From: Halobaculum gomorrense
GTDB taxonomy: Archaea > Halobacteriota > Halobacteria > Halobacteriales > Haloferacaceae
Assembly: GCF_900129775.1 (NCBI RefSeq)
Contig: NZ_FQWV01000003.1
Location: 62,001-126,000 of the forward strand
DNA length: 64,000 nucleotides
Direction of reading: 5' to 3'
Shown: positions 1-57,863 of the stretch, one piece after another
Numbering within the stretch: position 1 is the stretch's first letter
How the letters are laid out: every line of letters begins with the position of its first letter
Translations under genes and position numbers: made by a program
Notes under the pieces: model-generated
Told to the model about the DNA's origin: nothing
The model's database searches: none
The model's input: the letters and a program-made list of their open reading frames with translations, nothing else

Positions 1-2523
1 ACGGTCTACCGCGGGTCCGGGGAGAACAGAACCGACTACCTCACGGAACAGGGCGTCGACCTCCGCCATCTGGATATCGCCCGCGACTCGGCGGAGTTCG
101 AGGGCGGGCAGCTCACCCTGACGGCGACGAACGACACGGCGGGACTCGCCGGGTCGTCGTTCGATCTGCTCGCGACCGCCGACGGCGACGACCGGCGCGC
201 GACGCTCTCGGCGACGCTCGAAAACGGCACCGTCAGGGTCGACCGGAACGACGCGTTCACCGGGCTGCTCGTGCCGCCGGCGAACGTGACGCTGGCTGCC
301 GCCGGCGGCGGGCCGTCGGTCACCGGTGACACGAGCGTGGCGCTCGGGTCCGCCGCGCCCGACCCGACGGTCATCGTCTCGGCCGGCGGTGTCACGGTCG
401 AATCGCCGCTGCTGGTCGCCGGGACGACCTACGGCGTCCACGTCGCGACGAGCGGTCCGGCCGGGGAGTTCGCGACCACAGCGCCCGCACGGGAGACCGA
501 CGGCGTGTACACCCTGTCGATCGAGAACGAGTACATCGCCGGGGTCGACAGCGTCGAGATCTCGGTGTCGACCGACGGCGGGTCGGTGCTCCGGTACCGA
601 ACGGAGGTCGGGACCCCCGCGGTCGGAACCCTCGGCAGTAACCAGCGCAGCGTGACGCTCTCGGACGGGACGTTCGCGGACAGCGATGTCGAGTTCGTGC
701 TGCTGTCGATCGGTGACCGCGTTCGCGTGGTGACCGAGGCGACGGCCAACGACACGACCGTCTCGCTCGGGGGGTTACCCGCTGGGATGGGACTCGCTCG
801 GAACGGCTCCTACCGGCTCGTCGTCGCCTTCGCGGACGCGCCGTCGAAAACCGTCGCCGTCGATGGCGACGCCAAGAGCGCCGGACTCGTCTCACTGAGT
901 GCTGCCGCGGACAAAAAAACGGATGCCGGAACGCCGGCGGAAATGAACGGCTCAACGGGGAACGCGTCGGCCGGCCTGTTCGATCGCGTCCCCGGCGGTC
1001 AGTTCACGCTCGGTCTCGTCGGCGGCCTGCTCATCCTGCTCGTCGGCGGCGGCGGCTACGTCGTCGGCCAGTCGCTGGTCGGTGGCTCCGGCGGCGGGGG
1101 GGCGGCGGCCGGCCGACAAACGCGCGACGTGCGCGTCCGGATCGCCGACGGATACGCCGACGAGCGGCTCACCGACGAGGTGTACCTCACGGCACGTCCG
1201 GCGAACCAGTCGGCGACGAGCGACGTGAACCGCACCGGCGGCGGCCGCGAGGACTCCGTCGAGGGAGGCGTCGTTACGTGGACGCTCGACGCCGAGCCGT
1301 ACGAGTTCACCGCCTCCTACAACGGCACCACCGTCACCGAGACCGCGGACATGCTCGAGGACGACCTCGTCCTCCGCTTCCGGCCGGTCTCCAAGTCCGT
1401 CACCGTCACCGACGAGACGGGCGAGCCCGTGTCCGACGCCAGGGTCACCGCGACGTTCGACGGCGAGACCGTCACCGAGCCGACCGACGCGAACGGGCGC
1501 GCCTCGCTGACGCTGCCGGTGACCGCTTCCGCAGTGGAGGTGACGGCCGAGCACGATCGGTACGAGCCCGACACGAAGCGGGTGTCCGATCCCAACGACA
1601 TCCCGTCGCAGCTCCGCGTCGTCGGAAAGACCGGAACACTTCGGGTCGAGACGGCCATCGACGGCCAACCGGCGGACGCGGTCGAGGTCAGCCTCGACAC
1701 CGACGACGAGTGGCTCCGAACCCGGCTCCGAGAGTCGAGTCCGACCGACGAGGGAGACGACGCCGTCGGCCTCCCCGCCGGCGAGTACACGCTCGTCGGC
1801 TCGGTCGACGCCGCGCCGTTCGAGGACGACAGAGCGCGCGTCACCGTTCGCGAGAACAAGACGACTGCCGTCACGCTCGACGTGCCGTTCGAGTACGAAC
1901 TGTCCGCGGACCACCGCGAGTCGCTCGCGTCGCTCCGCAGCGACGCGGACGACCTGGTCCCGGGCGGCCGGCTCGACTCGGCGATCCACGGCTACTACGC
2001 GAGCGTCGCGCGGTCGCTGGCGGACGCCGTCGAGCGGGTCCCCGACTCGGGGGTTCGCTTCGCGGAAACCGGGGTCGACCCCGAACCGGTGGTCGACGCG
2101 ATGCTGGACGCCGGCAACGGTTGCGTCGAGGCCGTCGACAACGCGATGAACACGAAACACAACGTCGACCTCTTCAGCGCGTGCGCGGACATGCGCGAGG
2201 CCACCGTCGAGTGGCGGGCCGGCTACGATCTCGACGACTGCTTCGCGTTGATCGACGAGGACCGAGTGGGACAGCGCGCAGAGCTCAAATCGCGGCTGTC
2301 GGAGGCCGGCTCGACCGTCGAGGACCACCGCGGCGACGTGAACGTCGTTTCACCGGCCAGCGATGTCGTCGAAGAGCTAGAGGCGTACGAACGAGACACG
2401 AGGGAGTCGGACGAGGTGCGAAACGCGGCGTTCGTCTTCGCTGTCGCCGGCTTCGCCGCGGCCGTGACCGAACTGTTCGACCACCCGCGGCTGCTCGACC
2501 GGCTCAACCGGACGATGTACTGA
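1..2523 (+). CDS. Membrane protein with Ig-like domains on both sides of one transmembrane segment (5' truncated)
   Basis: The reading frame is open from the first base, so the true start lies outside the window; 840 residues are visible. Residues 1-325 are beta-rich and Thr/Val/Gly-rich, as in haloarchaeal surface proteins. One Gly-rich hydrophobic segment follows at about 338-358. After it come a beta domain, a carboxypeptidase-regulatory-like domain (about 420-510), a second beta domain and a helical C-terminus with three Cys. If the N-terminus is outside, the last 480 residues are cytoplasmic, which is unusual for such domains. The next gene starts 2 bases after the stop, so this heads a three-gene operon. 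I recognise no specific function. Confidence 0.85.
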   Translation, partial: TVYRGSGENRTDYLTEQGVDLRHLDIARDSAEFEGGQLTLTATNDTAGLAGSSFDLLATADGDDRRATLSATLENGTVRVDRNDAFTGLLVPPANVTLAAAGGGPSVTGDTSVALGSAAPDPTVIVSAGGVTVESPLLVAGTTYGVHVATSGPAGEFATTAPARETDGVYTLSIENEYIAGVDSVEISVSTDGGSVLRYRTEVGTPAVGTLGSNQRSVTLSDGTFADSDVEFVLLSIGDRVRVVTEATANDTTVSLGGLPAGMGLARNGSYRLVVAFADAPSKTVAVDGDAKSAGLVSLSAAADKKTDAGTPAEMNGSTGNASAGLFDRVPGGQFTLGLVGGLLILLVGGGGYVVGQSLVGGSGGGGAAAGRQTRDVRVRIADGYADERLTDEVYLTARPANQSATSDVNRTGGGREDSVEGGVVTWTLDAEPYEFTASYNGTTVTETADMLEDDLVLRFRPVSKSVTVTDETGEPVSDARVTATFDGETVTEPTDANGRASLTLPVTASAVEVTAEHDRYEPDTKRVSDPNDIPSQLRVVGKTGTLRVETAIDGQPADAVEVSLDTDDEWLRTRLRESSPTDEGDDAVGLPAGEYTLVGSVDAAPFEDDRARVTVRENKTTAVTLDVPFEYELSADHRESLASLRSDADDLVPGGRLDSAIHGYYASVARSLADAVERVPDSGVRFAETGVDPEPVVDAMLDAGNGCVEAVDNAMNTKHNVDLFSACADMREATVEWRAGYDLDDCFALIDEDRVGQRAELKSRLSEAGSTVEDHRGDVNVVSPASDVVEELEAYERDTRESDEVRNAAFVFAVAGFAAAVTELFDHPRLLDRLNRTMY

Positions 2524-2525
2524 TA

Positions 2526-3527
2526 ATGACTCCAATCCCAACCACGACCCCACGGATCGCAACGATCGCCGTGTGCCTGTTGCTCGTCGTCGGATCGGTC
2601 CCCGTCGGGGCGACCCAGACGGACGCCGAGACGGCAGACGAGTTCCTGACCGCGCTACGGCAGTACGAGGACTCAGAAGCGCTGTCGACGTACAGCGAGT
2701 TCGAGGTGATGCGCGGCCAGGCCGTCACCGCCGTCCAGACGGGCGAGTTCACCGACGCGGACCGCGAACGGATGACCGCCGTCGTCGCCGTCCTCGAGAA
2801 CTTCACGGCGGCCTATCGGACCGCACAAAACAACAGCACCGGTCAGGGGCTCCGGCTCGCCGACGCGACCGCGCAGGCGATCGACCGACTTGAGGCCGCC
2901 GGCGGCGACAACTACGCCACGCTCGCCCGACTCGGGCTCGAACGGTTCTACCGCCAGCGCGGCGAGACGCTGTACGAGCGCGCTCGCGGTGCGACGAACA
3001 CCTCGGCCCAGCTGGACTACCTCGAGAGCGCGGCTGCGGCGTTCAAAGCCGCGGGCGCGAGCGGGCGGTACTCCGCGGTGAGCGCGGAGGCGAGCCGCGT
3101 CCGCGCCATCTTCGAGTCCGACCGCGAGCGGATGAACTCCGCACTGAGCGCCGCCGGGTCGTTCGTCGACGCCTGCGGCGAGGCGTGCGCCTCGCCGGTC
3201 GCGGCGATCACGACGCTCGGGCCCGGCGTGTTCGGCACGTACGTCGACGCCCGGTCGGCAGCCGCACAGGCGGCTGTCGCGGCTCGGCTGGCAGAGAAAC
3301 ACGGGCTCGAACGCGCCAGTGAGCGCGCGAACACGCTCGCGTCGTCGACGAGCGACGCGCTGTTCGCGCTCTCGCTGGCGGCGACCGTCCTCGCGCTCGC
3401 GTACGCGGTGCTTGTCGGCCTCGTCGCCGCCGCGTTCGGCTGGCGGGTCGCGACGTGGGCCGAGGATGTCGACGGCTCGAAGGTGGGACAGATCGTCCCG
3501 CGCGCCCCCGTGGAGGTGTCTCAATGA
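2526..3527 (+). CDS. Exported helical protein anchored by a C-terminal transmembrane segment
   Basis: The protein has 333 residues. Residues 1-28 are a Sec-type signal peptide ending near VPVGA. Residues 30-270 are predicted mostly helical, with two close Cys (motif CGEAC) near 218. A long hydrophobic segment at about 277-305 is followed by a short cytoplasmic tail. The ATG at 2526 was chosen because it directly follows the upstream stop and precedes the signal peptide; an open frame further upstream is antisense-like noise. The stop overlaps the next start (ATGA). The role is unknown; it probably works with its two operon neighbours at the cell surface. Confidence 0.82.
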   Translation: MTPIPTTTPRIATIAVCLLLVVGSVPVGATQTDAETADEFLTALRQYEDSEALSTYSEFEVMRGQAVTAVQTGEFTDADRERMTAVVAVLENFTAAYRTAQNNSTGQGLRLADATAQAIDRLEAAGGDNYATLARLGLERFYRQRGETLYERARGATNTSAQLDYLESAAAAFKAAGASGRYSAVSAEASRVRAIFESDRERMNSALSAAGSFVDACGEACASPVAAITTLGPGVFGTYVDARSAAAQAAVAARLAEKHGLERASERANTLASSTSDALFALSLAATVLALAYAVLVGLVAAAFGWRVATWAEDVDGSKVGQIVPRAPVEVSQ

Positions 3528-6250
3528 CCCGCACGAGCAGCGTCGCGCGGCTGCTCGCACTCGCGTTCGCCGTCGTCGTGGTGCTCGGCGCGGCGACGCC
3601 GGCGATCGGCGTCCAAACGACCGTCGAGACGGATGCGGCGCTGACCGACCAGACGGTGACCGACGAGCTCTCGTTCACCTTCACCGCCGATTCGAACGGG
3701 ACCGTCGACGCGACGCAGGAGATCTCCCGCGCGAACGGGAACGTCACCTTCGCGTTCGACTCGTGGGAGCGGGTCGGCGGGGGGGCCAGCGGGACCTCCT
3801 CCTCGTGGGAGGTCGTCGCCGGTGAGGAGTACCGCGTGACCTACGAGGTGACTGTCACCGGCAGCGTCTCAGAACAGACCTACTCGGGGACGGCGCAGAT
3901 CTCGGGTGCGACCTCCGCGTCCGAGCAGCTCGAGGTGTACGTCGACGTGCTCTACCCCGAGTTCGGCGTCGTCGACACCGGCGATCCGAAGCTGGTGTTC
4001 GACAACCCGAACAGCCAGTCGCAAACGACCACCTTCGACGTGACGGTGCCGAACACCGGAAACGGGGCGATGGTGCTCTCGGACGTGTCGTTCTCCAGCG
4101 TGCCGGCCGACTTCACGGTCGACGCGGTGTCGATCCCAGACACGATCGGCGCGAACGACGAGGGCGACGTGGGGCTGGAGGTGACGGCCGACGACAGCGT
4201 CAGCGCGGGGACGTACAGCTTCACGATGACGCTCGAGGACAACCTCGGCAACACGCGTGACGTGAGCGTCTCCGTCGACGTGGTGAAGCCGCCGATCGTT
4301 TCGGTGCCGGGCGACGAGGTGAACGTCGGCGACGTGCTCGTCGGCTCCTCGAGCACCGTCGACTTCCAGGTCGAAGAGATCGCCGGAAACGACGGCATCG
4401 ACGGGCTCACCGTCGAGATAATCGGCGCGGAGACCGACGGCAGTGTCTCCTTCAATGGCCTCCGGTCCGTCTCAACCTCGCCCGGCGGGAGCGACACCGC
4501 TTCGGTGACGATGTCCGGGTTCGACTCGGCCGACCAACACGAGGAGTTGACGTGGGACCTAAAGGTGACGCCGGACGCCGCAAACGCGCCCAGCTACACC
4601 TTCACGGTCACCGGACGGGTGATCTACCCGGCGAAGCTGGAGCGCGTGGAGTCGTCGGACCCGACGATCCCGTTCGACGAACCGAAGTCGTCCACGTCGA
4701 CGTTCCAGCAGACGACAGAGGTCGGCATCGTCAACTCCGGCGACCTGGAGATGACCGTCGTCAGCGCCGACGCGTCGATGGTGACCGGCGGCCAGTACAT
4801 CACGGCCGGCATCTCCGACCTCCCGAACGCCGTGAGCGGGCTCTCGACCGGAACGGCGACGCTGTCGCTCACGGCCGACGACGACACCCCCGAGGGGGAG
4901 TACGAAGTCGAGATCACCGTCCAGACTGAGAGTGCTGGCACGAAGACGATCACGCGGACCGTCACCGTCTCCCAGCAACCGGAGCTGTCGGTGTCGAACT
5001 CGGTCTCATACGGCGAGGTGACGATCACGGAGAACCGGACGCAGACGATCGACGTGGCCGAGCGCCTCGGGTTCGAGTCGATCGAGAACGTCCAAGTCAA
5101 GCGGGTCGACGGCCCGAACCGCTGGCTCACGGTCGTGAGCGAACCGAGGGGCACGGTCGCCGCCGGAGAGACGAAGCCACTGGTCGTCGCCTTGCAGTTC
5201 GACACGCAAGCCGAGCTGTACCAGCAGTACCGCTGGCGGTTCCGCGTCTCCGGCGACGGCGTCGAAACCCAGACGATCACGGTGACCGCACGCGCCAAGC
5301 CGTACAGCTTCGACCGGATCACCGAGCCGCTCGGACAGTACGAGTCCGCAGTCCAGTGGAAACGCGACACCGCGGTCCCGATGAACGAGATGCTGCTCAC
5401 AATGGAACAGCGGCTCCGCGGCGACGAGAAGGTCCCCGGCGCGGACCTCTCGCGGGGGCTCGCGGTGGGGCGCGCGACGCTGCTGTTCGTCGACTCCCTC
5501 GACGCCGCCCGCGCGGCCCAGGAGAACGGGAGCTACGCGCAGGCACAGCGATCGCTGGCCCGCGCGGCCGTCGCCCGGGACCTGATGAAACAGTACGCCG
5601 GTTCCCTCGAACAGCCAGACCTGCGTTCGACGGCGCGCCAGGGGATCAGCGCTGCCGACGAGGCGTTCGCTGCGACCGTCGCCGACCAGCGCGACCACTA
5701 CCGCGGCGTCGTGGAGGCGAACAAATCGGCTATCGCGAACGCCGAGGCCCACAGGGCGCTGATGCGGCTCGCCCAGTACACCGGCAACGACGAGGCCGCG
5801 CAGCGACACCGGGCTGCGTACGAGGACGCGTCGGCACGCTACCGACGGCTCGTCGACACTGCCGCGACTCGCCGGGCGAGCGCCGAGTCCGCGTACGCGG
5901 CGTACCGAGCGAACGCGACGGTCGTGCTCGCGGGGTACCCGCTCGTCTTCAACCCCGCACGCGCCGACGCCGCGCTGGAACAGATCAACCGGATCACCGA
6001 TCTCTACAGCGACTCGGCCGCCGGCTTCCGACGTGCCGGCGCGACCGACGAGGCGGACGCCACGGCCGAGCGGGCCGCGACTGTCGGAGGACGGCTCGCG
6101 GTCAGCCGGTACGGACTCTTCGGTGCGATCGGGGCGTACGCGCTCGCCGTACTCCTCGTCCTCGCCCGGGTCGGGTTCCGCACGTACGCGTACGTTCAGG
6201 ACGCCGAAGCGGCCACGACCGGGGAGTTCCTCACGCAGATGTCGACCTGA
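3524..6250 (+). CDS. Large exported multi-Ig (CARDB/NEW3-like) protein with helical stalk and C-terminal transmembrane anchor
   Basis: The protein has 908 residues. A signal peptide occupies about 1-30. Several beta-sandwich repeats follow between about 30 and 620; their phrases such as VPNTGNG and VNSGDLE are typical of CARDB/NEW3-type domains. Residues 630-850 form a helical, Ala/Arg-rich region, then one transmembrane segment lies at about 862-885 with a short tail. The start overlaps the preceding stop by four bases (ATGA), indicating translational coupling. The layout (beta domains, helical part, anchor) echoes the other two genes of the operon. The likely role is a surface scaffold or receptor; no enzyme motif is visible. 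Confidence 0.85.
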   Translation: MTRTSSVARLLALAFAVVVVLGAATPAIGVQTTVETDAALTDQTVTDELSFTFTADSNGTVDATQEISRANGNVTFAFDSWERVGGGASGTSSSWEVVAGEEYRVTYEVTVTGSVSEQTYSGTAQISGATSASEQLEVYVDVLYPEFGVVDTGDPKLVFDNPNSQSQTTTFDVTVPNTGNGAMVLSDVSFSSVPADFTVDAVSIPDTIGANDEGDVGLEVTADDSVSAGTYSFTMTLEDNLGNTRDVSVSVDVVKPPIVSVPGDEVNVGDVLVGSSSTVDFQVEEIAGNDGIDGLTVEIIGAETDGSVSFNGLRSVSTSPGGSDTASVTMSGFDSADQHEELTWDLKVTPDAANAPSYTFTVTGRVIYPAKLERVESSDPTIPFDEPKSSTSTFQQTTEVGIVNSGDLEMTVVSADASMVTGGQYITAGISDLPNAVSGLSTGTATLSLTADDDTPEGEYEVEITVQTESAGTKTITRTVTVSQQPELSVSNSVSYGEVTITENRTQTIDVAERLGFESIENVQVKRVDGPNRWLTVVSEPRGTVAAGETKPLVVALQFDTQAELYQQYRWRFRVSGDGVETQTITVTARAKPYSFDRITEPLGQYESAVQWKRDTAVPMNEMLLTMEQRLRGDEKVPGADLSRGLAVGRATLLFVDSLDAARAAQENGSYAQAQRSLARAAVARDLMKQYAGSLEQPDLRSTARQGISAADEAFAATVADQRDHYRGVVEANKSAIANAEAHRALMRLAQYTGNDEAAQRHRAAYEDASARYRRLVDTAATRRASAESAYAAYRANATVVLAGYPLVFNPARADAALEQINRITDLYSDSAAGFRRAGATDEADATAERAATVGGRLAVSRYGLFGAIGAYALAVLLVLARVGFRTYAYVQDAEAATTGEFLTQMST

Positions 6251-6321: not shown

Positions 6322-9300
6322 TTACTCGTACTGCGTCGAGAGCCGCTGCGGGAGCCCGGACTCGTCCGACTCGACGTCGAGATCCCACGCGTCCGAGGCG
6401 ACCGCGCCCTCGTCGTCGGCGGTCGCGGTGACCGTGGCGCTCGTCGCGGCGTCGCCGGCCGACACCTCCGCGTCGATCGCGATCCGCTCGCCGGCGTCGA
6501 CCCCCTCCAGGTCGACGAGGTATCGGACCGACTCGCCGGACGCGAGGTCGTCGCCGTCGGAACCCTCGGCGTACATCGTCTTCTCGACGTTGGTCCCCTC
6601 GGCGTCGACGGACACCGACTCGACGGGACGCGACCCGTCGTTTGCGACCGAGAGGAACACCGAACCGAAGCCCCGCTCGACGCGCGACTGCGGACCCACG
6701 TCGATCGAGAGGTCGTCGACGCGGTCGCTGTCGGTTCCGACGACCGACTCCCGGACAACGAGCGTGTTCACCTGCTGCGGCCCGTCTCCGGTGTGTCGGT
6801 CGGTCCGACGCGCGCGCACGAACGCCTTCGCGACATCACCCTGCAGCGTGTACGGAGTCGTCACCGTCACGTGTGCTGGCGAGTCGGGGGAAACCGTGGC
6901 GTCGATCGGCGCCGACCGCTCGCCGCCGACGACCGCCTCCTCGACCGCCCACTCGCCCTCGTCGCTCTCGAGCGTGACCGAGAGAACGCCGTCGTCCGGT
7001 CCGTCGGGCTGCCAGGTGATCATCGCCACCAACTCGCCGTCCTCGACGGCCCGCTCGGTCGCCGGCACCGATGCGGTCTTCCCCTCGTGTTCCACCTCCA
7101 CGCGCGGGAGCGACAGCGACGACCGAAGCGGCACGTGGTACCGAGTGCCGACCGCCTCGCCGCCGCCCCGAACCTTCAGGCGCTGGGCGTAGGCGCCGTC
7201 GTCGGTTCGGAGGTGGAACTCGACGGGTTCCGGGTCGTCGTTGGAGACGACCAACCGCTCTTCGAACACCGCCCCTCGTCGAGGCGTCTCCGACGGGAAC
7301 CGCCGATCGATCGAGATCGGTATCGATCCGTCACCTCCTTCGACACCCGACTGGGCTCTCCCCGGCGAGCCGCCCCGGCGTCGGCTCGAACCGGCGGTAC
7401 CGCCGGTGCGGCCGGCATCGCCGCCGCCGGCCACGCCGGTTCCCCCGGCGGGAAGCAGCGAGCACCGTGCGAGCCCGAGCCGCTCTGAGACGTGGCCCCC
7501 GCTCGTCTCGACGGTGACCGATCGATCCCCGGGCACCGTGACCGGGAGCGCAATCCGATAGGCCCCGTCTGCGGGGATCGACACCGGCATCGAGAACGAG
7601 CCGTCCTCGTCCGGAACGCCGTCGACGCTCACGTCGTCGTCGACGGCGACGGGAGTCTCGTTGTGCAGCGTCACCAGCAGGAAGCCGTCCGACTCCGCCT
7701 CTAGGTCGATCGCCGTCGGCGTTACCGGCACGGCCGTCTCGGCTTCCAGCGGGTCGACGCCGTCCGCGCGCACCTCCACGTCGCCGCTCGGTAGGTTCTG
7801 TTCGAACGGCACCGCCTCTGCGGCCCCGGGGTCAAGCGTGCCGACCGTCGTCTCGCCGACGGTGACGCCGGAGACCGTCGCCTTCCCGACGTTCTCGACG
7901 CGTATCGTCGCCGTGAGCGTGCCGTCTTCGACCGCCTCGAGGTCGGTCTCGACACGGAGCGCGGTCGTCTCTTCTTGGACCTCGAGGGTCTTCGTGACTG
8001 ATTCCTCGCCGACCGTCGCGGTCACATCGACCGCATCGCCGTCCACCGAGTGAAGCGAGACGCGGCGGCGCTGCGTCGCGCCGGTGTCGATGGTCGCGGA
8101 GACGTTCGAGGAGGCGACGCGGGCGCCCTCGGCCTCGACGGTCGCGTCGACCTCGACTGCGCCGTCGCTCTCGTTCGCGAGCGCGATCACCACCGTCGGG
8201 TCACGCGGGCGCAGCGAGTCGCCCTCGATCTCCACGCCGACGGCGTCGTCGGCCTGGCCGACCGCGGCGTACACGGTCGCCGTGCCGCTGCCGACGGTGC
8301 AGACGAGATCGAGCGACGGCGTCGTCGCGATCGGCGTGCCGCTCACCCCGTCGAGCGGGTGGCGGTTGCCGTCGGCGTCGACCGCCAGGTCGCTGCCGGA
8401 GACGCGGGCCGCCAGGGCGCTCTCGCCCGCGTCGGCCAGCCAAGACACGTCGCCGTCGATCTCCCACTCTCGTCGTTCGCCCTCGTACCCGACGAGCTGT
8501 CCCCCTTTGAGCGAGACGACCGCCCGTCCGGAGAGCAGGCCAACGTCGGTCACCGCGCCCGAGAGCGTCCGTTCATCGAGCTGCTCGCCGTCGGCGTCGA
8601 GCACCGTGAGGAACGACCACGAGGCGACCGCGAGTCGGCCGTCGGCGGCCGCGACCGCAGGCGACTCCGCCACCTCGGCGTGCGGCTGATCGAACCGCCC
8701 CGCCTCGATGCCGGTTCGACCCTCGACGACGACGAACTCCCCGTCGCCGGTCCGGACGTACACCCGGTCGTTGTCGGGGTCCGCGTCCACCGAGCGGCCG
8801 TCGGCCACGTCGACGCCCCACACGCGGCTTCCGGAGTGGGAGAACGCCTCCAGCTCGGTCCCGCTCAGCGCGTACACCCTGTCTGCGACGGCCACGTCGA
8901 GCACGTCGTCCCTGCGGGCGACGCGCCGTCGGTCGCCCGAGGTGATCAGGTCGACCCGCCCGTCGCCGGTGGCGACGGCGATCACGCCGGGACCGGCGTC
9001 CGCGGCCGCGACCGCCGGCATGTCGAACGCGTCGACCTGCACGTACTGTCGGGGGACCTGCGGTCCGTCGGAACCGGCGGGCCCGTCTGCCGTCCCCGTG
9101 GCGTCGGCTCCTGACTCCCCGGGATCAACTTCGCAGTCGGATTCGCCCCCGTCCCCGCCGTCTGAGTGGCCTCCGGCCGCGGCGGCGGGCTCGTCACCGC
9201 TCCACGCCCCGGATTCGCCTCCGGCCGTCCCGTCGCCCCAGTCGTCGCTACCCTCGCCCTCGACCGCGGGGCTCCGGTCGCGACCGTCCTCGTCCGTCCC

Positions 9301-9408
9301 GTCGTCGACGGAGTCCGACCCCGCGTTCGGGCCGCCGTTGACGCGACCGGCCTCCGGCCCATCATCGTTCGGCTTCTCTCCGTCCGGCTCGGGGTCGGTG
9401 CCGTCCAC
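6322..9408 (-). CDS. Acidic beta-propeller plus multi-Ig protein without export signal, last gene of the AAA cluster
   Basis: The protein has 1028 residues from a GTG start placed two bases after the stop of the AAA gene; an open frame continues upstream but lies inside that gene. Residues 1-105 are acidic low-complexity (Asp/Gly/Ser). Residues 110-370 contain repeats like those of PQQ/WD-type propellers (motifs such as VDLITSGDRR and VYALSG). About five CARDB-like beta domains follow, with a Gly/Arg-rich linker near 690. I see no signal peptide and no transmembrane segment, so it is probably a cytoplasmic scaffold for the neighbouring ATPase. The function is unknown. Confidence 0.85.
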   Translation of the reverse strand: MDGTDPEPDGEKPNDDGPEAGRVNGGPNAGSDSVDDGTDEDGRDRSPAVEGEGSDDWGDGTAGGESGAWSGDEPAAAAGGHSDGGDGGESDCEVDPGESGADATGTADGPAGSDGPQVPRQYVQVDAFDMPAVAAADAGPGVIAVATGDGRVDLITSGDRRRVARRDDVLDVAVADRVYALSGTELEAFSHSGSRVWGVDVADGRSVDADPDNDRVYVRTGDGEFVVVEGRTGIEAGRFDQPHAEVAESPAVAAADGRLAVASWSFLTVLDADGEQLDERTLSGAVTDVGLLSGRAVVSLKGGQLVGYEGERREWEIDGDVSWLADAGESALAARVSGSDLAVDADGNRHPLDGVSGTPIATTPSLDLVCTVGSGTATVYAAVGQADDAVGVEIEGDSLRPRDPTVVIALANESDGAVEVDATVEAEGARVASSNVSATIDTGATQRRRVSLHSVDGDAVDVTATVGEESVTKTLEVQEETTALRVETDLEAVEDGTLTATIRVENVGKATVSGVTVGETTVGTLDPGAAEAVPFEQNLPSGDVEVRADGVDPLEAETAVPVTPTAIDLEAESDGFLLVTLHNETPVAVDDDVSVDGVPDEDGSFSMPVSIPADGAYRIALPVTVPGDRSVTVETSGGHVSERLGLARCSLLPAGGTGVAGGGDAGRTGGTAGSSRRRGGSPGRAQSGVEGGDGSIPISIDRRFPSETPRRGAVFEERLVVSNDDPEPVEFHLRTDDGAYAQRLKVRGGGEAVGTRYHVPLRSSLSLPRVEVEHEGKTASVPATERAVEDGELVAMITWQPDGPDDGVLSVTLESDEGEWAVEEAVVGGERSAPIDATVSPDSPAHVTVTTPYTLQGDVAKAFVRARRTDRHTGDGPQQVNTLVVRESVVGTDSDRVDDLSIDVGPQSRVERGFGSVFLSVANDGSRPVESVSVDAEGTNVEKTMYAEGSDGDDLASGESVRYLVDLEGVDAGERIAIDAEVSAGDAATSATVTATADDEGAVASDAWDLDVESDESGLPQRLSTQYE

Positions 9409-9410
9409 GG

Positions 9411-11066
9411 CTACTCCGCCTCCGCGTCGCCCTCGGTACCGTCCCCGTCGGCGTCCGTCGAGGTTGACGTGTCGGTGTCGGGCGCCGACGCGGGGGCAGC
9501 CGCGTTGGCGGCGTTCTCCTCGCGGATCTGTTGGGCCTGCTCCTCGATGTACCGCTTCATGTCGGGGTACCCCTCGAGCTCCGAGGCCTGCTTCATCGTC
9601 GAGGAGACGTACTGTCTGACCGTCTTCGGCTCTGATTCGTCCAGCTTCCGCAGGAGGTACTGTTTGTCGGGCGTGATCGCGTCGCCGTCGATGACGCTCT
9701 CGATGAGCTCGCGCTGTAGCTCCGAGCCGAGCACGCGGTCGGCGATCTCCGCGGGGGTGTAGCCGACCGACGCCTCGCCCAGCTCCTGTAGCGCCTCCTC
9801 GTCGAGGTCCTCGCCGATGCGACCCAGCGACGTGCGCCACACCTCCGCCATCACGTCTGCGTCGGGTTGGGGGATGAACTGCTGGATCGGGAACCGCCGG
9901 GTCGCTGCCGGGTCGATGCTGAAGGGCATGTTCGTCGCGCCGATGACGAGGAGGTTGTCCTCCACGTCGTTCATCTCCTGGAGGAAGGCGTTGGTGAGCG
10001 CGCGCTCGTGGCGCTGGAGGTTGTCGTCCGAGCGGTCGGGAATGAGCGTCTCCACCTCGTCGAAAAAGAGGACGGCGAAGCCGTCGCCGGCGGCCTCGTG
10101 GGCCTGCTCGAACGCCGCCCGGATGTTCTTCTCGGACTCGCCGGAGTACTTCGAGACCACGTCGCTGCCGCGGACCTCGAGGAAGACGACCTCGCCGTAG
10201 CTGTCCTCGATGTCGGTGTTGTGTTTCGCCTCGTAGGCGATCGCCTCCGAGACGAGCGTCTTCCCGCAGCCGGGCGGCCCGTACAGCATCATCCCGCCGC
10301 CGCGGTCGGCGAACTCCTCGCCGTAGCGCTCGACGACCTCGTCGCGAACAGCCGGCTCGAACAGCGACAGCATCATTACGGCGGTGCGCTTCACCCCCTC
10401 CAACCCGGCGACGTCCTCCTCGAAGCTTGTCGTCGGGTTCTGTGGGGTGATGTCGATGTTGGCCTCTTCCCCGTCGTCCCGACCGCCGGCGCCGCCGGCG
10501 TCACCATCGCCGCTGGGCGCTCCGTCCGCGCCGCCACCGGCCGCGCCGCCCGCGCCCGCGGGCGGTCCCATGCTCGCCGGCGGCTCGTCGAGGAACTCGA
10601 AGTCAGTGTCCTCGGTGACCCGCAGCGACGTTCCGCGCGGCTCCAGTTCGCCGACGACGAACTCGACGCGCTCGCCGCCGATATCGGCCACCTCGCGGAT
10701 CGGATGCAACAGGAACTGATGCTCGGCGAGCGCGGACGACAGCGCCTCCTCGTTGACGCCCTCGGCGTAGATGGTCGCGCGCTTGCACGCCCTGACCGCC
10801 CCGAGCGATACGTCGGTGTCGACGTAGAAGTCGTTCGTTCGGTTGATCCCCCCGAACAGCGTGGCGACGTTGCTGTTGAGGTAGACTTTGTTCTTGATCG
10901 TGCTGGCGAAGCCGTCCTCCTCGGTGTCGACCCGGAAGAACGCCTCGCTGCCCGCGTGGCGGACGCGCGCGATCTCCGCGCCCGGCCCGACTTTGCTCTT
11001 TCCCACGGTGACGTGGGAGGTCGGCTGCTCGTCTTTCGTGATCGGCGTGAGATTGACACTCGTCAT
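9411..11066 (-). CDS. AAA ATPase with Cdc48-N-like domain and a single ATPase ring
   Basis: The protein has 551 residues. Residues 1-165 resemble the Cdc48/p97 N-terminal double-psi barrel module; the stretch ending in LRVTEDTDFEF matches the usual end of that domain. A Gly/Ala-rich linker (165-205) leads to one AAA domain: Walker A GPPGCGKT at 263-270, pore-loop-like SKYSGESEKNIR near 305, Walker B LFFDEVE near 333-339, sensor Asn near 389 and arginine-finger pair near 400. The C-terminus is helical, then acidic. Classical archaeal Cdc48 has two rings and about 740 residues. It should remodel or unfold a partner protein; the partner is presumably encoded beside it. The start overlaps the upstream stop (ATGA). 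Confidence 0.93.
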   Translation of the reverse strand: MTSVNLTPITKDEQPTSHVTVGKSKVGPGAEIARVRHAGSEAFFRVDTEEDGFASTIKNKVYLNSNVATLFGGINRTNDFYVDTDVSLGAVRACKRATIYAEGVNEEALSSALAEHQFLLHPIREVADIGGERVEFVVGELEPRGTSLRVTEDTDFEFLDEPPASMGPPAGAGGAAGGGADGAPSGDGDAGGAGGRDDGEEANIDITPQNPTTSFEEDVAGLEGVKRTAVMMLSLFEPAVRDEVVERYGEEFADRGGGMMLYGPPGCGKTLVSEAIAYEAKHNTDIEDSYGEVVFLEVRGSDVVSKYSGESEKNIRAAFEQAHEAAGDGFAVLFFDEVETLIPDRSDDNLQRHERALTNAFLQEMNDVEDNLLVIGATNMPFSIDPAATRRFPIQQFIPQPDADVMAEVWRTSLGRIGEDLDEEALQELGEASVGYTPAEIADRVLGSELQRELIESVIDGDAITPDKQYLLRKLDESEPKTVRQYVSSTMKQASELEGYPDMKRYIEEQAQQIREENAANAAAPASAPDTDTSTSTDADGDGTEGDAEAE

Positions 11067-11707
11067 GCGACTGGGTTGTAGGCGTTCATCGTTCGGGTCA
11101 CGTACTCGCGCACCTGCCGCTCGTTCGCGTCGACCAAGCCATCGGGAGGGTTGAGCCACAGCGTCCGCGTCGCGACGTTTCGAACCGTCGTGGCGGTGTC
11201 CCGGAGGGCACCCGACACGTCCCGGAGCGCGGCCGCCGAGTCGTCGCGACCGTGGAGTTCCAACCGACCCGCACACCGCTCGACGCGCGCGGCGGCCTCC
11301 TCTATCCGTTCGGCGACGACGGGCACGACCACGAACCAGTTCGCGACCGGTTCGCCGACCGTCGCAAGCGGGATGTCGCGACCGTCGGCCGTGTCGCCAC
11401 CGAGACGTCCCGCCTCGCGCGCGGTGTCGACGGCCGCGGCCGGCGGCTCGGCGTCCTCGAACGTCGAAACGAGCACTCGCTCGACCGCCTCGGCGACCTC
11501 GGGGTCGTCCGCCGTCGCGGGCACGGGCAGCGGGAGCGCGTCGGCAAAGAGGGTGCCGAGTCCACGAAGCGCGCCGTCGAACGCCGCGACCTCCGCCCAG
11601 ATCCGCCGCGGTGCGGGAGGCTCCGACCACGAGAGGACCTGGTCGCTCGTCGCCTCGATGGTGGCGACCCGGTCGATCCACGGGGCGGCGCTCGATGGAC
11701 GCGCCAC
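11063..11707 (-). CDS. Unknown helical protein coupled to the AAA ATPase gene
   Basis: The protein has 214 residues, soluble, with no signal peptide or membrane segment. It is Ala/Val/Arg/Glu-rich and predicted mostly helical; the C-terminal third (REYVTRTMNAYNPVA) looks well ordered. Its stop codon overlaps the ATPase start by four bases, so the two are probably made in fixed proportion. A role as adaptor or substrate-presenting subunit for the ATPase is an inference from position only. I recognise no family. Confidence 0.75.
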   Translation of the reverse strand: MARPSSAAPWIDRVATIEATSDQVLSWSEPPAPRRIWAEVAAFDGALRGLGTLFADALPLPVPATADDPEVAEAVERVLVSTFEDAEPPAAAVDTAREAGRLGGDTADGRDIPLATVGEPVANWFVVVPVVAERIEEAAARVERCAGRLELHGRDDSAAALRDVSGALRDTATTVRNVATRTLWLNPPDGLVDANERQVREYVTRTMNAYNPVA

Positions 11708-11815
11708 GGCGTTACCTCCCGCCCCGCGGGGGGACGGTCGAAGAGTGGGGTGCCCGGGACTCTCGGGGGCGGGCGGGGTCGGCAGCGGCTCCCGCGGAGC
11801 TCAGGGCCGACATCC

Positions 11816-12850
11816 TCACTGCTCCTGAATCGTCTCCGTCCCGGTGTCCTCCTGGGTGATCGCCTGGGAGGACTCGTTCAACTCGGCCATCTCGTCGGAG
11901 TTGCCGCGGAGGTCGTCGAGGAAGTTCTGGGGGTCCTCGTCTTCCATCCGCTCTTGTTTCGGGACGACGTTGCCCATCGCGGAGAGCACGTTCGTGAACT
12001 GTTCGGAGGCGGCGACGGCCTCGGTCGGCCACAGCTGCTGCGTCCGGATCCGGTCGCGGAGCCGCTCCTGTTCGATTGAGAACTGGTCTTTCGTCGATTC
12101 GAGCTGATCGATAATCTCCCCGAGGTCCATCTGGTCGGGATTCGGGTTCGGGATCGTCTCGCCTTGCTTCTCCTCCTGCTCGACGAGGTTGTCGTAGTGG
12201 TAGTACTGCTCGCGAGCGTGGTCGAACTTCCGGCGTTCCTCCTCGTCCAGCTCCGAGATGTCGCGGTCGCCCGCGATCGAGAGCATCTCCTGTTTGTACT
12301 CCTCGCGCTTCTCGCGGAGGTTCTGGAGGTGTTCGGTCACGTCGGTCGTCTCCTCCGCGCGCGAGGTGAGCCGCTCTTGGGCCTCCTCGACCCGCCCGAC
12401 GGCCGTCTCGATCCGCTCGGTGAGCGTGTCGAATGCAGCCGCCCAGTTGCTGTACATCTTCACCGCGCGGTCCATCTCGTCTTCGTCGTACGTGTGGGGC
12501 GGGCGCAACACGGTCACCGTCGACTGTTCGACGGTGACGATGTCGTTGTCAGCGAGGTAGTCGATGATGGCGCGCGCGGAGTCCTCGCTGCGGGCGTGCT
12601 CGCTCTCGGCGAGCGTCTCCGCGGCGTCTTCGACGCCGATCACTGCGTTTCCGTCCTGGTCGATGGAGAGCTCCTCACCGCCGAGCACTTCCTCCATGAG
12701 GTGCGCGAGCAGTTCCTCCCAGTTGCCGCTGTCCTCGTCGGCCCATTCCGCGAATCCGAGCTCGAACCTGACCGCCGAGTCGGTCTGGCTGTGCGGTCTC
12801 GCGACGACTGTTCCGGATTCCTCGTCTTCCTCGAAGGTGGTGTAGCGCAT
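11816..12850 (-). CDS. Coiled-coil protein of the AAA cluster
   Basis: The protein has 344 residues. Residues 1-120 look like an alpha/beta domain, including a possible winged-helix (ARAIIDYLADNDIVTVEQS). Residues 130-300 are charged and strongly helical, with heptad-like Glu/Arg/Leu patterns (QNLREKREEYKQEM and similar), interrupted by an Asn/Pro stretch near 235. The C-terminus is acidic and Gln-rich. It lies in the same orientation between two unknown genes of the cluster, with 108 bases to the next. A long coiled coil beside an AAA ATPase recalls filament-remodelling pairs, but no ESCRT-III signature can be claimed. Confidence 0.82.
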   Translation of the reverse strand: MRYTTFEEDEESGTVVARPHSQTDSAVRFELGFAEWADEDSGNWEELLAHLMEEVLGGEELSIDQDGNAVIGVEDAAETLAESEHARSEDSARAIIDYLADNDIVTVEQSTVTVLRPPHTYDEDEMDRAVKMYSNWAAAFDTLTERIETAVGRVEEAQERLTSRAEETTDVTEHLQNLREKREEYKQEMLSIAGDRDISELDEEERRKFDHAREQYYHYDNLVEQEEKQGETIPNPNPDQMDLGEIIDQLESTKDQFSIEQERLRDRIRTQQLWPTEAVAASEQFTNVLSAMGNVVPKQERMEDEDPQNFLDDLRGNSDEMAELNESSQAITQEDTGTETIQEQ

Positions 12851-12885
12851 TGAAGTGGGGTAGTAGGGGTGTGGCTCGTGTGTGG

Positions 12886-14007
12886 TCAGAATCGCTCGTC
12901 GATCAGTTCCTCGCCGCGCTCGCGGACCTGGGTCCGGGCGTAGGCGTTACCGGCGTCGCTGGTCGTGAGGTGGAGGTCGTCCACCTCGTCGCGGAGCTCC
13001 TGCTTGAGGGAGTCGGCCGTCGCCGCGGTCAGATCCTCCAACAGCGGACGGGTGAGCTCCTCCGCGCGCGTCTCGACCATGCGGTCGAACGGCTCAACCG
13101 ACACCGCGAGGCTGCGCGCGTCGAGCACCTCGATGTGGGGATCGTCGCCGTCCTCGTACTCGGCCTGCACCGCGTCGATGACGTCTCGTCGACCGAGGTC
13201 GGCGCCGCTCGACCGGACGTGCGCGAGCACGTTCGACCTGACCTCGATCTCCGATTCGACCAGCGAGTCGTACTCGCCGGTCGGCATCACGTTGCCCGCG
13301 TCGTCGAACGCGCGCTCCACGTCGTCGCCGAGGTCGTCGGCGAGCTTCTCGGCGAACTCGTCGAGCGCGCTCCGGACGAGGTACTCCCCGTCCATGTCGA
13401 TGATGAGCCCCTCGCCCTGCAGATAGCCGATCACGTCGGAGGTAGCCGCCACCGAGATGGCCTCCTCCAGTTGACCGTGCGAGAGTTTTCCGTGTGTCGC
13501 ACGGCGCTTGAGCTTCCCGTTGAGGTCGTCCTCGCCGGTCTCCTCCTTCAGGCGCGAGCCGACGGAGTAGTAGTCGCGGGACCCCGCGGCGATGCGCATC
13601 ACGAGGTTCTGCCGGCGGAGTTGCTTGGCGAAGAAGTCAGCGTCCTCGTGGGCCAGGTCGAACGCCTTCCTGAGGTCTTCGGTCGTGACGACCATCTGGT
13701 CGCGGAACACGCCCTTGAGGCGCTCGGTGATCCCCGTTCGCGTGCCGCTGCCGAACGGGTCCCAGTAGAACACGCCCGGCCGGATCCGCTCGAGGCTGTA
13801 GTTCTCGTCCTCCGCGAGGTCGCGAAGCGACTCCTTCACGTCGGAGGTCGACAGCTTCGGGGCCTTCAATCGCCCCTTCTCCCGGCTCTGGTACTGGTCT
13901 TTCAGGTCGTCGCGGACGCGGTCGACGTACAGGAACCCGTAGTTGGACTGTGAGATGTCCTGCGAGATGTCTTCCAGAACGTCGCGATCGACGGGACGAA
14001 GCGGCAT
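12886..14007 (-). CDS. Probable tandem winged-helix protein, first gene of the AAA cluster
   Basis: The protein has 373 residues, soluble. The first 200 residues contain several short helix-helix-strand units resembling winged helices (for example VVTTEDLRKAFDLAHEDAD and HGQLEEAISVAATSDVIGYL). A helical region follows. The ATG at 14007 has AT-rich DNA upstream (14020-14060), consistent with the operon promoter. Winged helices without other DNA-binding hallmarks can also mediate protein contacts, so it may be a regulator or a structural partner of the ATPase. I do not recognise the family. Confidence 0.8.
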   Translation of the reverse strand: MPLRPVDRDVLEDISQDISQSNYGFLYVDRVRDDLKDQYQSREKGRLKAPKLSTSDVKESLRDLAEDENYSLERIRPGVFYWDPFGSGTRTGITERLKGVFRDQMVVTTEDLRKAFDLAHEDADFFAKQLRRQNLVMRIAAGSRDYYSVGSRLKEETGEDDLNGKLKRRATHGKLSHGQLEEAISVAATSDVIGYLQGEGLIIDMDGEYLVRSALDEFAEKLADDLGDDVERAFDDAGNVMPTGEYDSLVESEIEVRSNVLAHVRSSGADLGRRDVIDAVQAEYEDGDDPHIEVLDARSLAVSVEPFDRMVETRAEELTRPLLEDLTAATADSLKQELRDEVDDLHLTTSDAGNAYARTQVRERGEELIDERF

Positions 14008-14310
14008 TGACAGGTATTCCAGACTGACGTGTACTAAGTGTTATCCCACTAGTATCACCGTCCGGAACTGCCCCCCATCGCGTCCACGGCCACCGCGCCG
14101 AGACGGCGGTACGCGGGACCTTCCGGCCGAGCTTTGTCGGGTGGTTCGAACCCAGCACACTGGCTGATTCGTATTTACTCAATTTCACTCTGTATTCAAG
14201 ATCGAACGTAGTATAAGACTTCTAGAACTCTTTCATGCGATTCATCAGATCGCACTTATTTAGATGGATCGGACGAAACACCTTAGTCCGCCGGCGCTCC
14301 CAACTGAGAT
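14008..14310. other. Intergenic region, AT-rich in its right half
   Basis: No supportable gene lies here. The left part should hold the promoter of the minus-strand AAA operon. From about 14160 the DNA becomes clearly AT-rich for this genome and stays so through the next short gene, suggesting a promoter region or a piece of foreign DNA. Confidence 0.5.
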
Positions 14311-14481
14311 ATGATCGATGCCCGAATGGTAGAGTATCTGGCTACGGTAGACGGAACTACTTCACTAGAAACAATTAAAACCGAAATAAGACGTACTTTT
14401 CTCGGACAAACCGATATGTTTGTTACAATCACACTCTCGCGCCGTGTGAACGGATCTTTGATCCGCGAGGTCGGACGATGA
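14311..14481 (+). CDS. Small AT-rich ORF of 56 residues, coupled to the next gene
   Basis: The frame reads MIDARMVEYLATV... and ends EVGR, with no recognised family; the N-terminal half could be part of a winged helix. The stop TGA overlaps the ATG of the following gene (ATGA at 14478), the same coupling seen for the genes downstream. Codon choice (CTA, ATA, ACT, GAA, AAA) is very unlike its GC-rich neighbours. It may be a genuine transferred gene, or the end of a decayed one. Confidence 0.42.
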   Translation: MIDARMVEYLATVDGTTSLETIKTEIRRTFLGQTDMFVTITLSRRVNGSLIREVGR

Positions 14482-14705
14482 CCGAGGACACGCTCGCGGA
14501 CGGCGGCCCCACGGCCCCGGCCATGACCGACAGATACGGCCGGATCTCGCTCGACGACGACAGCGTGGTCGTGTACGACCGCGAACGGACCGACGCGTGG
14601 GTCCAGTCCGACGTGGCGTACACGCTCCCGCTTCGGCGGCCGACCGGGGTCCACGAGCCGCCCGACGGAACGGACGCAGACGCCGCCGGCTCGGAGGGTG
14701 AGTGA
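14478..14705 (+). CDS. Small conserved-type haloarchaeal protein (DUF7331-like)
   Basis: The protein has 75 residues. The core MTDRYGRISLDDDSVVVYD followed by a TDAWVQSDV stretch resembles a short haloarchaeal family that I recall as DUF7331; this is from memory. The start is either the ATG at 14478, which overlaps the upstream short ORF, or the ATG at 14523, which begins exactly at the conserved core. The stop overlaps the NAD synthetase GTG start (GTGA), so it is cotranslated with that gene. The function is unknown. Confidence 0.65.
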   Translation: MTEDTLADGGPTAPAMTDRYGRISLDDDSVVVYDRERTDAWVQSDVAYTLPLRRPTGVHEPPDGTDADAAGSEGE

Positions 14706-16516: not shown

Positions 16517-17035
16517 CTACGGCTCCATGGGGGCCTCCAATCGAGCGACGTTCAGGTGAAGCGCGTTTCGGGCCTCGTCGACCGCCTCGACTTGCCCCGT
16601 CATGACCAGCCCCGAGTTCGGCGTGGGACCGACGATCACCGGGTCGCCCGCGCTGAATCTCGTGACCGACTCCCTGAACGTGACGCTCGCGCGGCACTTG
16701 TCTGGGTGGTGAACGTTGACGAAGTCGATCGACTCGACTGCCACGTCGATGCGGTCGTAGTCGTGTGCGAGCCCGAGGGTCTCGGTGTCGCTCTCGGCGT
16801 CGGGGTCGCGGCCAAGCGCCTCGAAGGCGGCATCGGTCGGGACGTAGCCCCCCTCCGATCCCGGGACGCCCTCGACCAGTCCGAGCGACTTCATCATCTG
16901 CATGAGGTTCCGGATCGTCCCGACGTGCCGGTCGCACACCTCCGCGATCTCCGTCGCCGGCATCGGTGACTCGGCGGCCTCGTACCCGTTGACGAGGGCG
17001 TTCAGGATCTCACGCTGGCTGCTGGTCAGGTCCAT
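16517..17035 (-). CDS. Winged-helix (Rrf2-like) transcriptional regulator
   Basis: The protein has 172 residues. Residues 1-65 form a winged helix (SQREILNALVNGY, then PATEIAEVCDRHVGTIRNLM). Residues 85-172 form a beta-rich domain that may bind a ligand. No Cys cluster like that of iron-sulfur Rrf2 proteins is present. The promoter side carries a TATA-like element (about 17065-17074) and an inverted repeat TCTCGG-N7-CCGAGA at 17090-17108. The 3' end touches the convergent NAD synthetase stop with no gap. Target genes are unknown. Confidence 0.75.
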   Translation of the reverse strand: MDLTSSQREILNALVNGYEAAESPMPATEIAEVCDRHVGTIRNLMQMMKSLGLVEGVPGSEGGYVPTDAAFEALGRDPDAESDTETLGLAHDYDRIDVAVESIDFVNVHHPDKCRASVTFRESVTRFSAGDPVIVGPTPNSGLVMTGQVEAVDEARNALHLNVARLEAPMEP

Positions 17036-17089
17036 CTGCGTCTATCGGGTGGTCGCCGCCGGCGTTCATATACGTTTGGTTCGTCCTGT

Positions 17090-17108
17090 TCTCGGAAGAC
17101 AGCCGAGA
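17090..17108 (-). promoter_or_regulatory. Inverted repeat upstream of the winged-helix regulator
   Basis: TCTCGG-N7-CCGAGA lies upstream of a TATA-like ATATACG box and about 55 bases from the start codon. The position suits an activator or autoregulatory site. Only a 6-bp arm supports it. Confidence 0.3.
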
Positions 17109-17200
17109 CGATCGGTCGCGTATGTTCTGCCGGAACGGACGATCTGGTGATTTCCGGCCACTCCGGCGGACGGACGCACACCGGCGGAGTCGCTCCCGGG

Positions 17201-56513: not shown

Positions 56514-56719
56514 TGACCACCGAACGCACGAGTGGCGGAATGGACTCCGGCATGGGGTCCGGTATGGACGGGGGGATGGCAGCTGGAGACATGGGTGTGG
56601 ATGGTGGAATGGTTGCGATCGCCGTCCTGATGCTTGCCAGCGGAGTCATCATGACCGTCCGACGGGATATGGTCAGCACGGAATCGTCTTCGCCTGTTCG
56701 GGACGAAGCAGCGAACTGA
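56510..56719 (+). CDS. Small Met/Gly-rich single-helix membrane protein
   Basis: The frame has 69 residues. Residues 9-35 alternate Gly, Met and Asp (SGMDSGMGSGMDGGM), then a transmembrane helix (about 34-50) and a short tail with RRDM. Met-rich stretches of this kind can bind copper(I), but this may also be low-complexity chance. Its ATG overlaps the stop of the preceding remnant (ATGATG at 56510). It is uncertain whether it is expressed. Confidence 0.42.
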   Translation: MMTTERTSGGMDSGMGSGMDGGMAAGDMGVDGGMVAIAVLMLASGVIMTVRRDMVSTESSSPVRDEAAN

Positions 56720-57848: not shown

Positions 57849-57863
57849 TGTTATCGCGTATCT

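What the first reader, a model, noticed from the sequence alone, without database searches (positions are those of the whole stretch)
6322..14007. Five-gene cluster around a Cdc48-N-like, single-ring AAA ATPase
Sequence: one AAA domain with all catalytic motifs and an aromatic pore loop follows a domain resembling the Cdc48/p97 N-terminus. It is tightly linked (ATGA overlap, 2-bp gap) to an unknown helical protein and a 1028-residue propeller/Ig protein, and preceded by a coiled-coil and a winged-helix-like protein. Known: Cdc48 in archaea has two rings and general adaptors. Inference: this is a dedicated remodelling machine with its own adaptor, filament-like or coiled-coil partner and scaffold, not described to my knowledge.
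Basis: partly seen in the sequence, partly recalled or inferred. Interest (0 to 1): 0.8.

Follow-up and report, generated by a model that had tools for sequence, protein, structure and literature searches.

The report
Archaeal ESCRT-like AAA cluster with tubulins
The five genes are one arm of a 16-gene membrane machine of salt-loving archaea that was predicted in 2024 as an unusual ESCRT-like system; here it is shown to be co-inherited with three divergent tubulin-like proteins, one of which occurs in exactly the same genomes as the ATPase.

Summary
In detail: five tandem genes (6322-14007, minus strand) at the stated coordinates, with the ATGA overlap and 2-bp gap. The order is conserved wherever I looked. 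The cluster converges on an 11-gene arm (window 1-6250, continuing outside the window) that encodes seven membrane-spanning proteins and three divergent tubulin/FtsZ-superfamily proteins. In 391 haloarchaeal genomes the ATPase occurs in 38. All 38 carry tubulin g8 (40 in all), and orthologues of the zinc-finger tubulin g2 occur in exactly the same 38. The two genomes with the tubulin arm but no ATPase lack h1-h4 and g1-g3 together; one genus keeps both arms unlinked. The claim 'not described' is wrong. The architecture matches the 'Halo_adaptin' ESCRT-like system of Makarova et al. 2024 (PMC10936438): Vps4-like ATPase with a Cdc48/VAT-type N-domain, two winged-helix proteins, an ESCRT-III-like protein, propeller-Ig 'adaptin-like' protein and a CetZ-like protein. 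The second half of the N-domain is Cdc48-like here; the double-psi barrel is not shown. ESCRT-III likeness of h3 is not confirmed. Best reading: an untested membrane-remodelling machine. The three-tubulin arm and strict g2-ATPase pairing go beyond the text I could read.

The parts
12886..14007 (-). h1: 373-aa soluble protein, first gene of the AAA arm; probable tandem winged-helix protein (corresponds by position and description to arCOG11740 of the Halo_adaptin system)
   Evidence: ORF; conserved in 20 of 20 AAA loci where its position was fetched; no TM; PDB profile search only E 0.35 to the winged-helix region of SelB; naming from PMC10936438
11816..12850 (-). h2: 344-aa acidic coiled-coil protein, N-terminal region probably winged helix (cf. 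arCOG11741)
   Evidence: ORF; Sec10_N-like coiled coil E 1.4e-4, below cut-off; in 22 of 22 AAA loci
11063..11707 (-). h3: 214-aa helical, fast-evolving protein directly upstream of and overlapping the ATPase gene; position of the 'derived ESCRT-III/PspA-like' protein
   Evidence: ORF; profile similarity to h2 E 4e-5 / 1.4e-4; PspA similarity not significant (E 0.12); in one reading frame with the ATPase in Natrinema
9411..11066 (-). h4: 551-aa single-ring AAA ATPase with Cdc48/VAT-like N-domain
10572..11066 (-). h4 N-domain (residues 1-165); residues about 102-165 = CDC48_2-like sub-domain
   Evidence: hhalign Nc E 1e-6, Nn E 0.047; Pfam CDC48_2
10257..10280 (-). Walker A GPPGCGKT (residues 263-270)
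   Evidence: invariant in 19 orthologues
10146..10151 (-). aromatic pore loop K306-Y307
   Evidence: Y307 invariant
10056..10070 (-). Walker B LFFDE (residues 333-337)
   Evidence: invariant
10002..10013 (-). arginine-finger region R352-x-x-R355
   Evidence: both Arg invariant
6322..9408 (-). h5: 1028-aa cytosolic beta-propeller + Ig-like ('adaptin-like') protein, no signal peptide or TM predicted
   Evidence: orthologue PQQ_2 7.5e-12 and CARDB 3.7e-6
3524..6250 (+). g11: 908-aa protein with signal sequence, Ig-like repeats and C-terminal TM helix (convergent arm)
   Evidence: in 24 of 24 loci
2526..3527 (+). g10: 333-aa protein, signal sequence, helical, C-terminal TM
1..2523 (+). g9 (3' part; gene starts at L044:18636, left of the window): Ig-like / CarboxypepD_reg membrane protein. 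The arm continues left of the window in L044: g8 tubulin-like 17431-18630, g7 15347-17431, g6 14307-15350, g5 14018-14305, g4 tubulin-like 12858-14021, g3 11269-12771, g2 zinc-finger tubulin-like 9643-11265, g1 7692-9620

Best explanation
The five genes are the soluble, ATP-driven arm of the haloarchaeal 'Halo_adaptin' ESCRT-like system, a 16-gene membrane-associated machine. SHOWN here: five-gene order; co-inheritance with an 11-gene arm encoding three divergent tubulin-superfamily proteins with conserved nucleotide loops and catalytic Asp pairs, and seven membrane-spanning proteins, several with Ig-like domains; intact ATPase motifs; Cdc48-like second half of the N-domain; no MIT-domain match. 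PUBLISHED prediction: Vps4-like ATPase, ESCRT-III-like h3, winged-helix h1/h2, adaptin-like h5. INFERRED mechanism: tubulin-like polymers assemble at the membrane on the transmembrane proteins; h1, h2 and h5 act as adaptors or scaffold; the hexameric ATPase, recruited through its Cdc48-type N-domain and h3, pulls subunits through its aromatic pore and so disassembles or remodels the polymer. The output would be membrane budding, vesicle formation or local envelope remodelling. The co-inheritance singles out tubulin g2 (with g1/g3) as the ATPase's most specific partner. Confidence is about 0.85 for membership of the described system and about 0.4 for the mechanism; the figure below is for the statement as a whole.
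For: Gene order of h1-h5 and g1-g11 in 24 loci. ATPase in 38 of 391 genomes, all 38 with g8 (P about 8e-51); g2 orthologues (468 bits or more) in exactly those 38. G042 and G048 lack h1-h4 and g1-g3 together. One genus (G017, G061, G097) keeps both arms unlinked. Tubulin domains PF00091 E 5e-14, 3e-13, 1e-9; T4 glycine loop and T7 D-x-x-D invariant; three separate clades outside FtsZ1/FtsZ2/CetZ. ATPase motifs, N-domain, no MIT match in the genome. h3-h4 in one frame in Natrinema; -4 overlap in 10 of 20 loci. TM split: none in h1-h5, seven proteins in the g arm. Matching published system.
Against: No experiment. ESCRT-III/PspA likeness of h3 not reproduced (E 0.12). Double-psi barrel not shown. 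Winged helices of h1/h2 not significant by profile search. The ATPase lies on a long branch and its grouping with Vps4 rather than other single-ring ATPases is unresolved. I could not retrieve the reference protein WP_014555335.1 or the paper's supplement, so identity with Halo_adaptin rests on matching architecture and order. The membrane output is inferred from gene content only.
Confidence: 0.6

Rival explanations
1. Tubulin-filament machine proper: the ATPase is a katanin-like remodeller whose substrate is the tubulin-like polymer (above all g2), and h2/h3 are adaptors rather than ESCRT-III polymers; the system is a cytoskeleton-driven envelope or motility device, not an ESCRT system.
For: g2 and the ATPase occur in exactly the same 38 genomes and are lost together; three tubulin families with intact catalytic Asp pairs; PspA likeness of h3 not significant and h3 resembles h2 instead; no Snf7 match above cut-off in the genome.
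Against: Co-inheritance does not name the substrate; g1 and g3 follow the same pattern in the two exceptions. The published analysis places the ATPase with Vps4 (PMC10936438).
Confidence: 0.3
2. Ordinary Cdc48-type protein-quality-control unfoldase with its own adaptors, sitting by chance beside a membrane locus.
For: Cdc48-like N-domain and general AAA motifs.
Against: Never found without the tubulin arm in 391 genomes, including three genomes in which the arms are unlinked; the genome already has several two-ring Cdc48 proteins; patchy distribution.
Confidence: 0.05
3. Plasmid-borne DNA segregation or transfer system (TubZ-like), or an anti-phage defence system, since the locus is often on plasmids and the AAA domain matches IetA models.
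For: Located on plasmids in Halobaculum, H. salinarum and Natrinema; PADLOC IetA match E 1.4e-28.
Against: Also on chromosome-sized contigs (for example the 4.48-Mb contig of G160); the IetA match covers only the generic AAA domain and no IetS protease lies among the genes; seven membrane proteins fit neither; no other PADLOC system hit.
Confidence: 0.05

Closest known systems
Halo_adaptin ESCRT-like system (Makarova et al. 2024, mBio, PMC10936438)
   Same: Vps4-like ATPase lacking MIT with VAT-type N-domain; protein encoded upstream of it; two winged-helix proteins, one with coiled coil; propeller + Ig 'adaptin-like' proteins; [quoted passage not shown] Halobacteriales only.
   Different: The text I read lists one CetZ-like and one membrane protein; here there are three tubulin-superfamily families and seven membrane-spanning proteins in a fixed 16-gene order. 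The paper names two propeller-Ig proteins; I see one (h5). ESCRT-III likeness of h3 not reproduced.
Halo.Tub tubulin-like proteins (Santana-Molina et al. 2023, PMC9871819)
   Same: Halobacterota tubulin-like proteins whose genome context holds several copies in quasi-tandem and coiled-coil neighbours.
   Different: Could not be matched by sequence (no accessions in the text read); that text mentions no AAA arm.
FtsZl1 systems (Makarova and Koonin 2010, PMC2875224)
   Same: Divergent FtsZ-tubulin protein with membrane proteins, predicted membrane remodelling.
   Different: FtsZl1 proteins carry Tubulin_2, a coiled coil, and vWA/GTPase/kinase neighbours; ours match PF00091 better, with AAA, propeller and Ig proteins.
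Archaeal Cdc48 / VAT
   Same: Second N sub-domain; AAA motifs.
   Different: One AAA domain instead of two; outside the D1/D2 clades.
Vps4 / CdvC
   Same: Single-ring AAA, gene follows small helical and winged-helix genes.
   Different: No MIT domain; Cdc48-type N-domain instead.

Membership tests
Halo_adaptin ESCRT-like system | Single-ring AAA ATPase without MIT domain | tested here: met
   One AAA domain; no MIT match in the ATPase or the genome
Halo_adaptin ESCRT-like system | N-domain related to VAT/Cdc48 N-domain | tested here: met
   hhalign E 1.4e-5 to 4e-6 against background 0.015 or worse; second sub-domain E 1e-6, barrel half alone only 0.047
Halo_adaptin ESCRT-like system | ESCRT-III/PspA-like protein encoded upstream of the ATPase | tested here: inconclusive
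   Small helical h3 in that position, but PspA profile E 0.12 (h3) and 0.0066 (h2, coiled coil); the paper itself calls the similarity weak
Halo_adaptin ESCRT-like system | Two winged-helix proteins, one fused to a coiled coil, at the start of the locus | tested here: inconclusive
   h1 and h2 in the right order; coiled coil in h2; no significant winged-helix profile hit
Halo_adaptin ESCRT-like system | Propeller + Ig 'adaptin-like' proteins (two in the paper) | tested here: inconclusive
   h5 orthologue: PQQ_2 7.5e-12 and CARDB 3.7e-6, so one is present; a second was not identified
Halo_adaptin ESCRT-like system | CetZ-like (tubulin-superfamily) protein and membrane protein in the locus | tested here: met
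   Three tubulin-superfamily proteins, seven membrane-spanning proteins
Halo_adaptin ESCRT-like system | ATPase orthologous to WP_014555335.1 and in the Halo_adaptin clade of the Vps4 tree | not testable with these tools
Cdc48/p97 | Two AAA rings (D1 and D2) | tested here: not met
   One AAA domain; outside D1/D2 in the tree
Cdc48/p97 | Double-psi barrel N-terminal sub-domain | tested here: inconclusive
   Collinear but E 0.047; structure model failed
CetZ / FtsZ1 / FtsZ2 (for g2, g4, g8) | Falls inside the family clade | tested here: not met
   Each is its own clade with 100/100 support on a long branch
FtsZl1 | Tubulin_2 domain plus coiled coil, with vWA/GTPase/kinase neighbours | tested here: not met
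   PF00091 is the better match in all three; Tubulin_2 below cut-off in g2 and g4, absent in g8; no vWA or kinase gene in the locus
IetAS anti-phage system | IetA ATPase paired with IetS subtilisin-like protease | tested here: not met
   Only the AAA domain matches; no protease among the locus genes

The most novel reading that the evidence does not exclude
A hybrid tubulin-AAA membrane machine in which the Cdc48-N/Vps4-like ATPase specifically remodels polymers of a zinc-finger tubulin-like protein (g2) at the membrane, alongside two further tubulin-like families, that is, a prokaryotic counterpart of a microtubule-remodelling ATPase integrated with transmembrane Ig-domain proteins. The strict pairing of ATPase and g2 would be its genetic signature.
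Probability: 0.25. Interest if true: 0.8.

Novelty: new member of a known kind. Interest (0 to 1): 0.45.

Why it matters
Halo_adaptin was the most divergent ESCRT-like system predicted in archaea, and I found no experimental work on it. The data here define its full 16-gene extent, divide it into a core and an ATPase sub-module, and link it to three tubulin families that two earlier papers touched on separately. H. salinarum R1 carries a plasmid copy (PHS2) with 15 of the 16 genes detected, which makes the question of ESCRT-like polymer or tubulin-like polymer as substrate of the ATPase testable.

Tried and rejected
AlphaFold2 on the ATPase as a single sequence: pLDDT 40.8, unusable; the allowed homologue set was too thin for a proper alignment, so no fold search was run. 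Genome-contig scan with the ATPase alignment returned mainly generic AAA proteins, one haloarchaeal relative; viral scan gave nothing useful. PDB profile searches with the N-domain, h1, h2 and h3 gave no meaningful hit. MreB-like_C match of h1 (E 0.0092) and Phage_TAC_2 match of h2 (E 0.0055): below cut-offs, discarded. IetA reading: generic AAA only. PspA likeness of h3: not significant. Identity of g2/g4/g8 with Halo.Tub: plausible, not testable here.
Full report
WHAT IS THERE. I call them h1 (14007-12886, 373 aa), h2 (12850-11816, 344 aa), h3 (11707-11063, 214 aa), h4 (11066-9411, the 551-aa AAA ATPase) and h5 (9408-6322, 1028 aa). h3/h4 overlap by ATGA; h4/h5 are 2 bp apart. The overlap is a conserved trait: -4 in 10 of 20 loci measured, and small overlaps in most of the others. 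In a Natrinema plasmid h3 and h4 form one open frame and one annotated gene, which points to a physical h3-h4 partnership; this is a single case.

THE ATPASE. PF00004 matches with E 5.8e-31. In 19 orthologues (54-89% identical) Walker A, Walker B, the pore-loop tyrosine, both arginines of the finger region and sensor 1 are invariant. The N-domain (residues 1-165) is related to the Cdc48 N-domain: Pfam CDC48_2 matches 5 of 19 members (best 7e-5), and a profile comparison with 14 archaeal Cdc48 N-domains gives E 1.4e-5 to 4e-6, against 0.015 or worse for 18 other families of the locus and its flanks. The signal comes from the second sub-domain (E 1e-6); the first, expected to be the double-psi barrel, is collinear but not significant alone (E 0.047). 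A single-sequence AlphaFold model failed. In an AAA tree the family is one long branch outside Cdc48 D1 and D2, near other single-ring ATPases; its exact place is unsure. No MIT domain is found in it or in its genome.

The five genes run head-on into a plus-strand arm that begins left of the window. Window 3524-6250, 2526-3527 and 1-2523 are its last three genes (g11, g10, g9); eight more lie in L044. Three of these (g2, g4, g8) are tubulin/FtsZ-superfamily proteins (PF00091, E 3e-13, 5e-14, 1e-9). Only g2 and g4 are annotated as FtsZ in public records. In all orthologues the T4 nucleotide loop (KGTGCG in g2, GGGTGCG in g4, GGGTGNG in g8) and the T7 pair D-x-x-D are invariant. g2 begins with a C-x2-C...H...H zinc-finger-like motif. 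In a tree with the FtsZ1, FtsZ2 and CetZ of four haloarchaea each is a separate clade with 100/100 support. Seven g-arm proteins (g1, g5-g7, g9-g11) are predicted to span the membrane; none of h1-h5 is (a simple hydropathy scan, with some variation among orthologues).

CONSERVATION. The order g1-g11 and h5-h1 is kept in 24 inspected loci from several families, apart from fetch limits and the poorly detectable small g5. In 391 Halobacteria genomes the ATPase occurs in 38 (16 of 86 genera). g8 occurs in 40, including all 38 (hypergeometric P about 8e-51, which ignores shared ancestry). g2 matches 40, of which 38 are close orthologues (468 bits or more) and are exactly the ATPase genomes; the other two, G080 and G031, are remote paralogues of 229 and 174 bits. 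Three genomes of one genus hold the two arms apart, 77 kb, about 255 kb and on different contigs, yet keep both. G042 and G048, of different genera, have g4, g6-g11 and h5 but lack h1-h4 and g1-g3. So the locus has a core (two tubulins, membrane proteins, h5) and an ATPase sub-module (h1-h4 with g1-g3, including tubulin g2).

IS IT KNOWN? Yes, as a prediction. Makarova et al. 2024 (PMC10936438; [quoted passage not shown] The five-gene cluster fits this element by element. I found no other paper using the name. Santana-Molina et al. 2023 (PMC9871819) separately noted 'Halo.Tub' tubulin-like proteins in quasi-tandem with coiled-coil neighbours, quite possibly g2/g4/g8; I could not test that. Not in the text I read: three tubulin families, the 16-gene two-arm order, the exact co-occurrence of ATPase and g2, the core/sub-module split, and the h3-h4 fusion.

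WHERE MY DATA DO NOT BACK THE PUBLISHED READING. PspA, the haloarchaeal ESCRT-III relative, is not significantly similar to h3 (E 0.12) and only marginally to h2 in a coiled-coil stretch (0.0066). Instead h3 resembles h2 (E 4e-5 and 1.4e-4), sharing an invariant Asn-Trp, as if both were winged-helix plus helical proteins. The genome has no Snf7 match above cut-off. The ESCRT-III identity of h3 should be treated as open. I also see one propeller-Ig protein where the paper names two.

HOW IT PROBABLY WORKS (inference). Polymers of tubulin-like GTPases, and perhaps of h2/h3, form at the membrane on the transmembrane proteins. h1, h2 and h5 connect or select substrates. The ATPase, held by its Cdc48-type N-domain and by h3, extracts subunits through its aromatic pore and so resets the polymer, as Vps4 does for ESCRT-III. 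Vesicle budding or envelope remodelling is the likeliest output. The exact pairing with g2 makes a tubulin-like substrate a serious alternative to an ESCRT-III-like one; this is the sharpest testable question.

VERDICT. Observation confirmed; interpretation partly supported; the system is a new member of a described but, as far as I found, experimentally untouched kind, with extensions that raise its interest moderately.

Noticed in passing
window 14702-16516 (+): The NAD+ synthase ORF (604 aa) holds two NAD_synthase stretches; the second has DLGAGVDA where the first has the ATP loop SGGIDS, so it looks like a tandem duplication with a degenerate second half plus a weak C-terminal HTH.
   Followed up: partly
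G340:C2 (L168, L169): Two copies of the whole locus on one replicon; in both the ATPase is broken into pieces (one lacks residues 1-71, the other is split), possibly a frameshifted duplicate or an assembly problem.
   Followed up: no
L138 (G097), L154 (G017), L166 (G061): In the genus with unlinked arms, two tandem CetZ-related tubulin-like genes lie beside the h arm; in the tree they fall next to CetZ, not with g4.
   Followed up: partly
L192 (G123:C1:2283634): Another divergent tubulin-superfamily protein whose N-terminus looks like a ribbon-helix-helix motif (MEPLNVRVPEPLLDEIDKKE), long branch near FtsZ.
   Followed up: no
L150-L153 (G042, G048): Reduced loci lacking h1-h4 and g1-g3 together but keeping the rest, natural variants useful for genetics.
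   Followed up: partly
window 56000-64000: G+C falls from about 0.70 to about 0.60 over the last 8 kb, suggesting a recently acquired segment.
   Followed up: no
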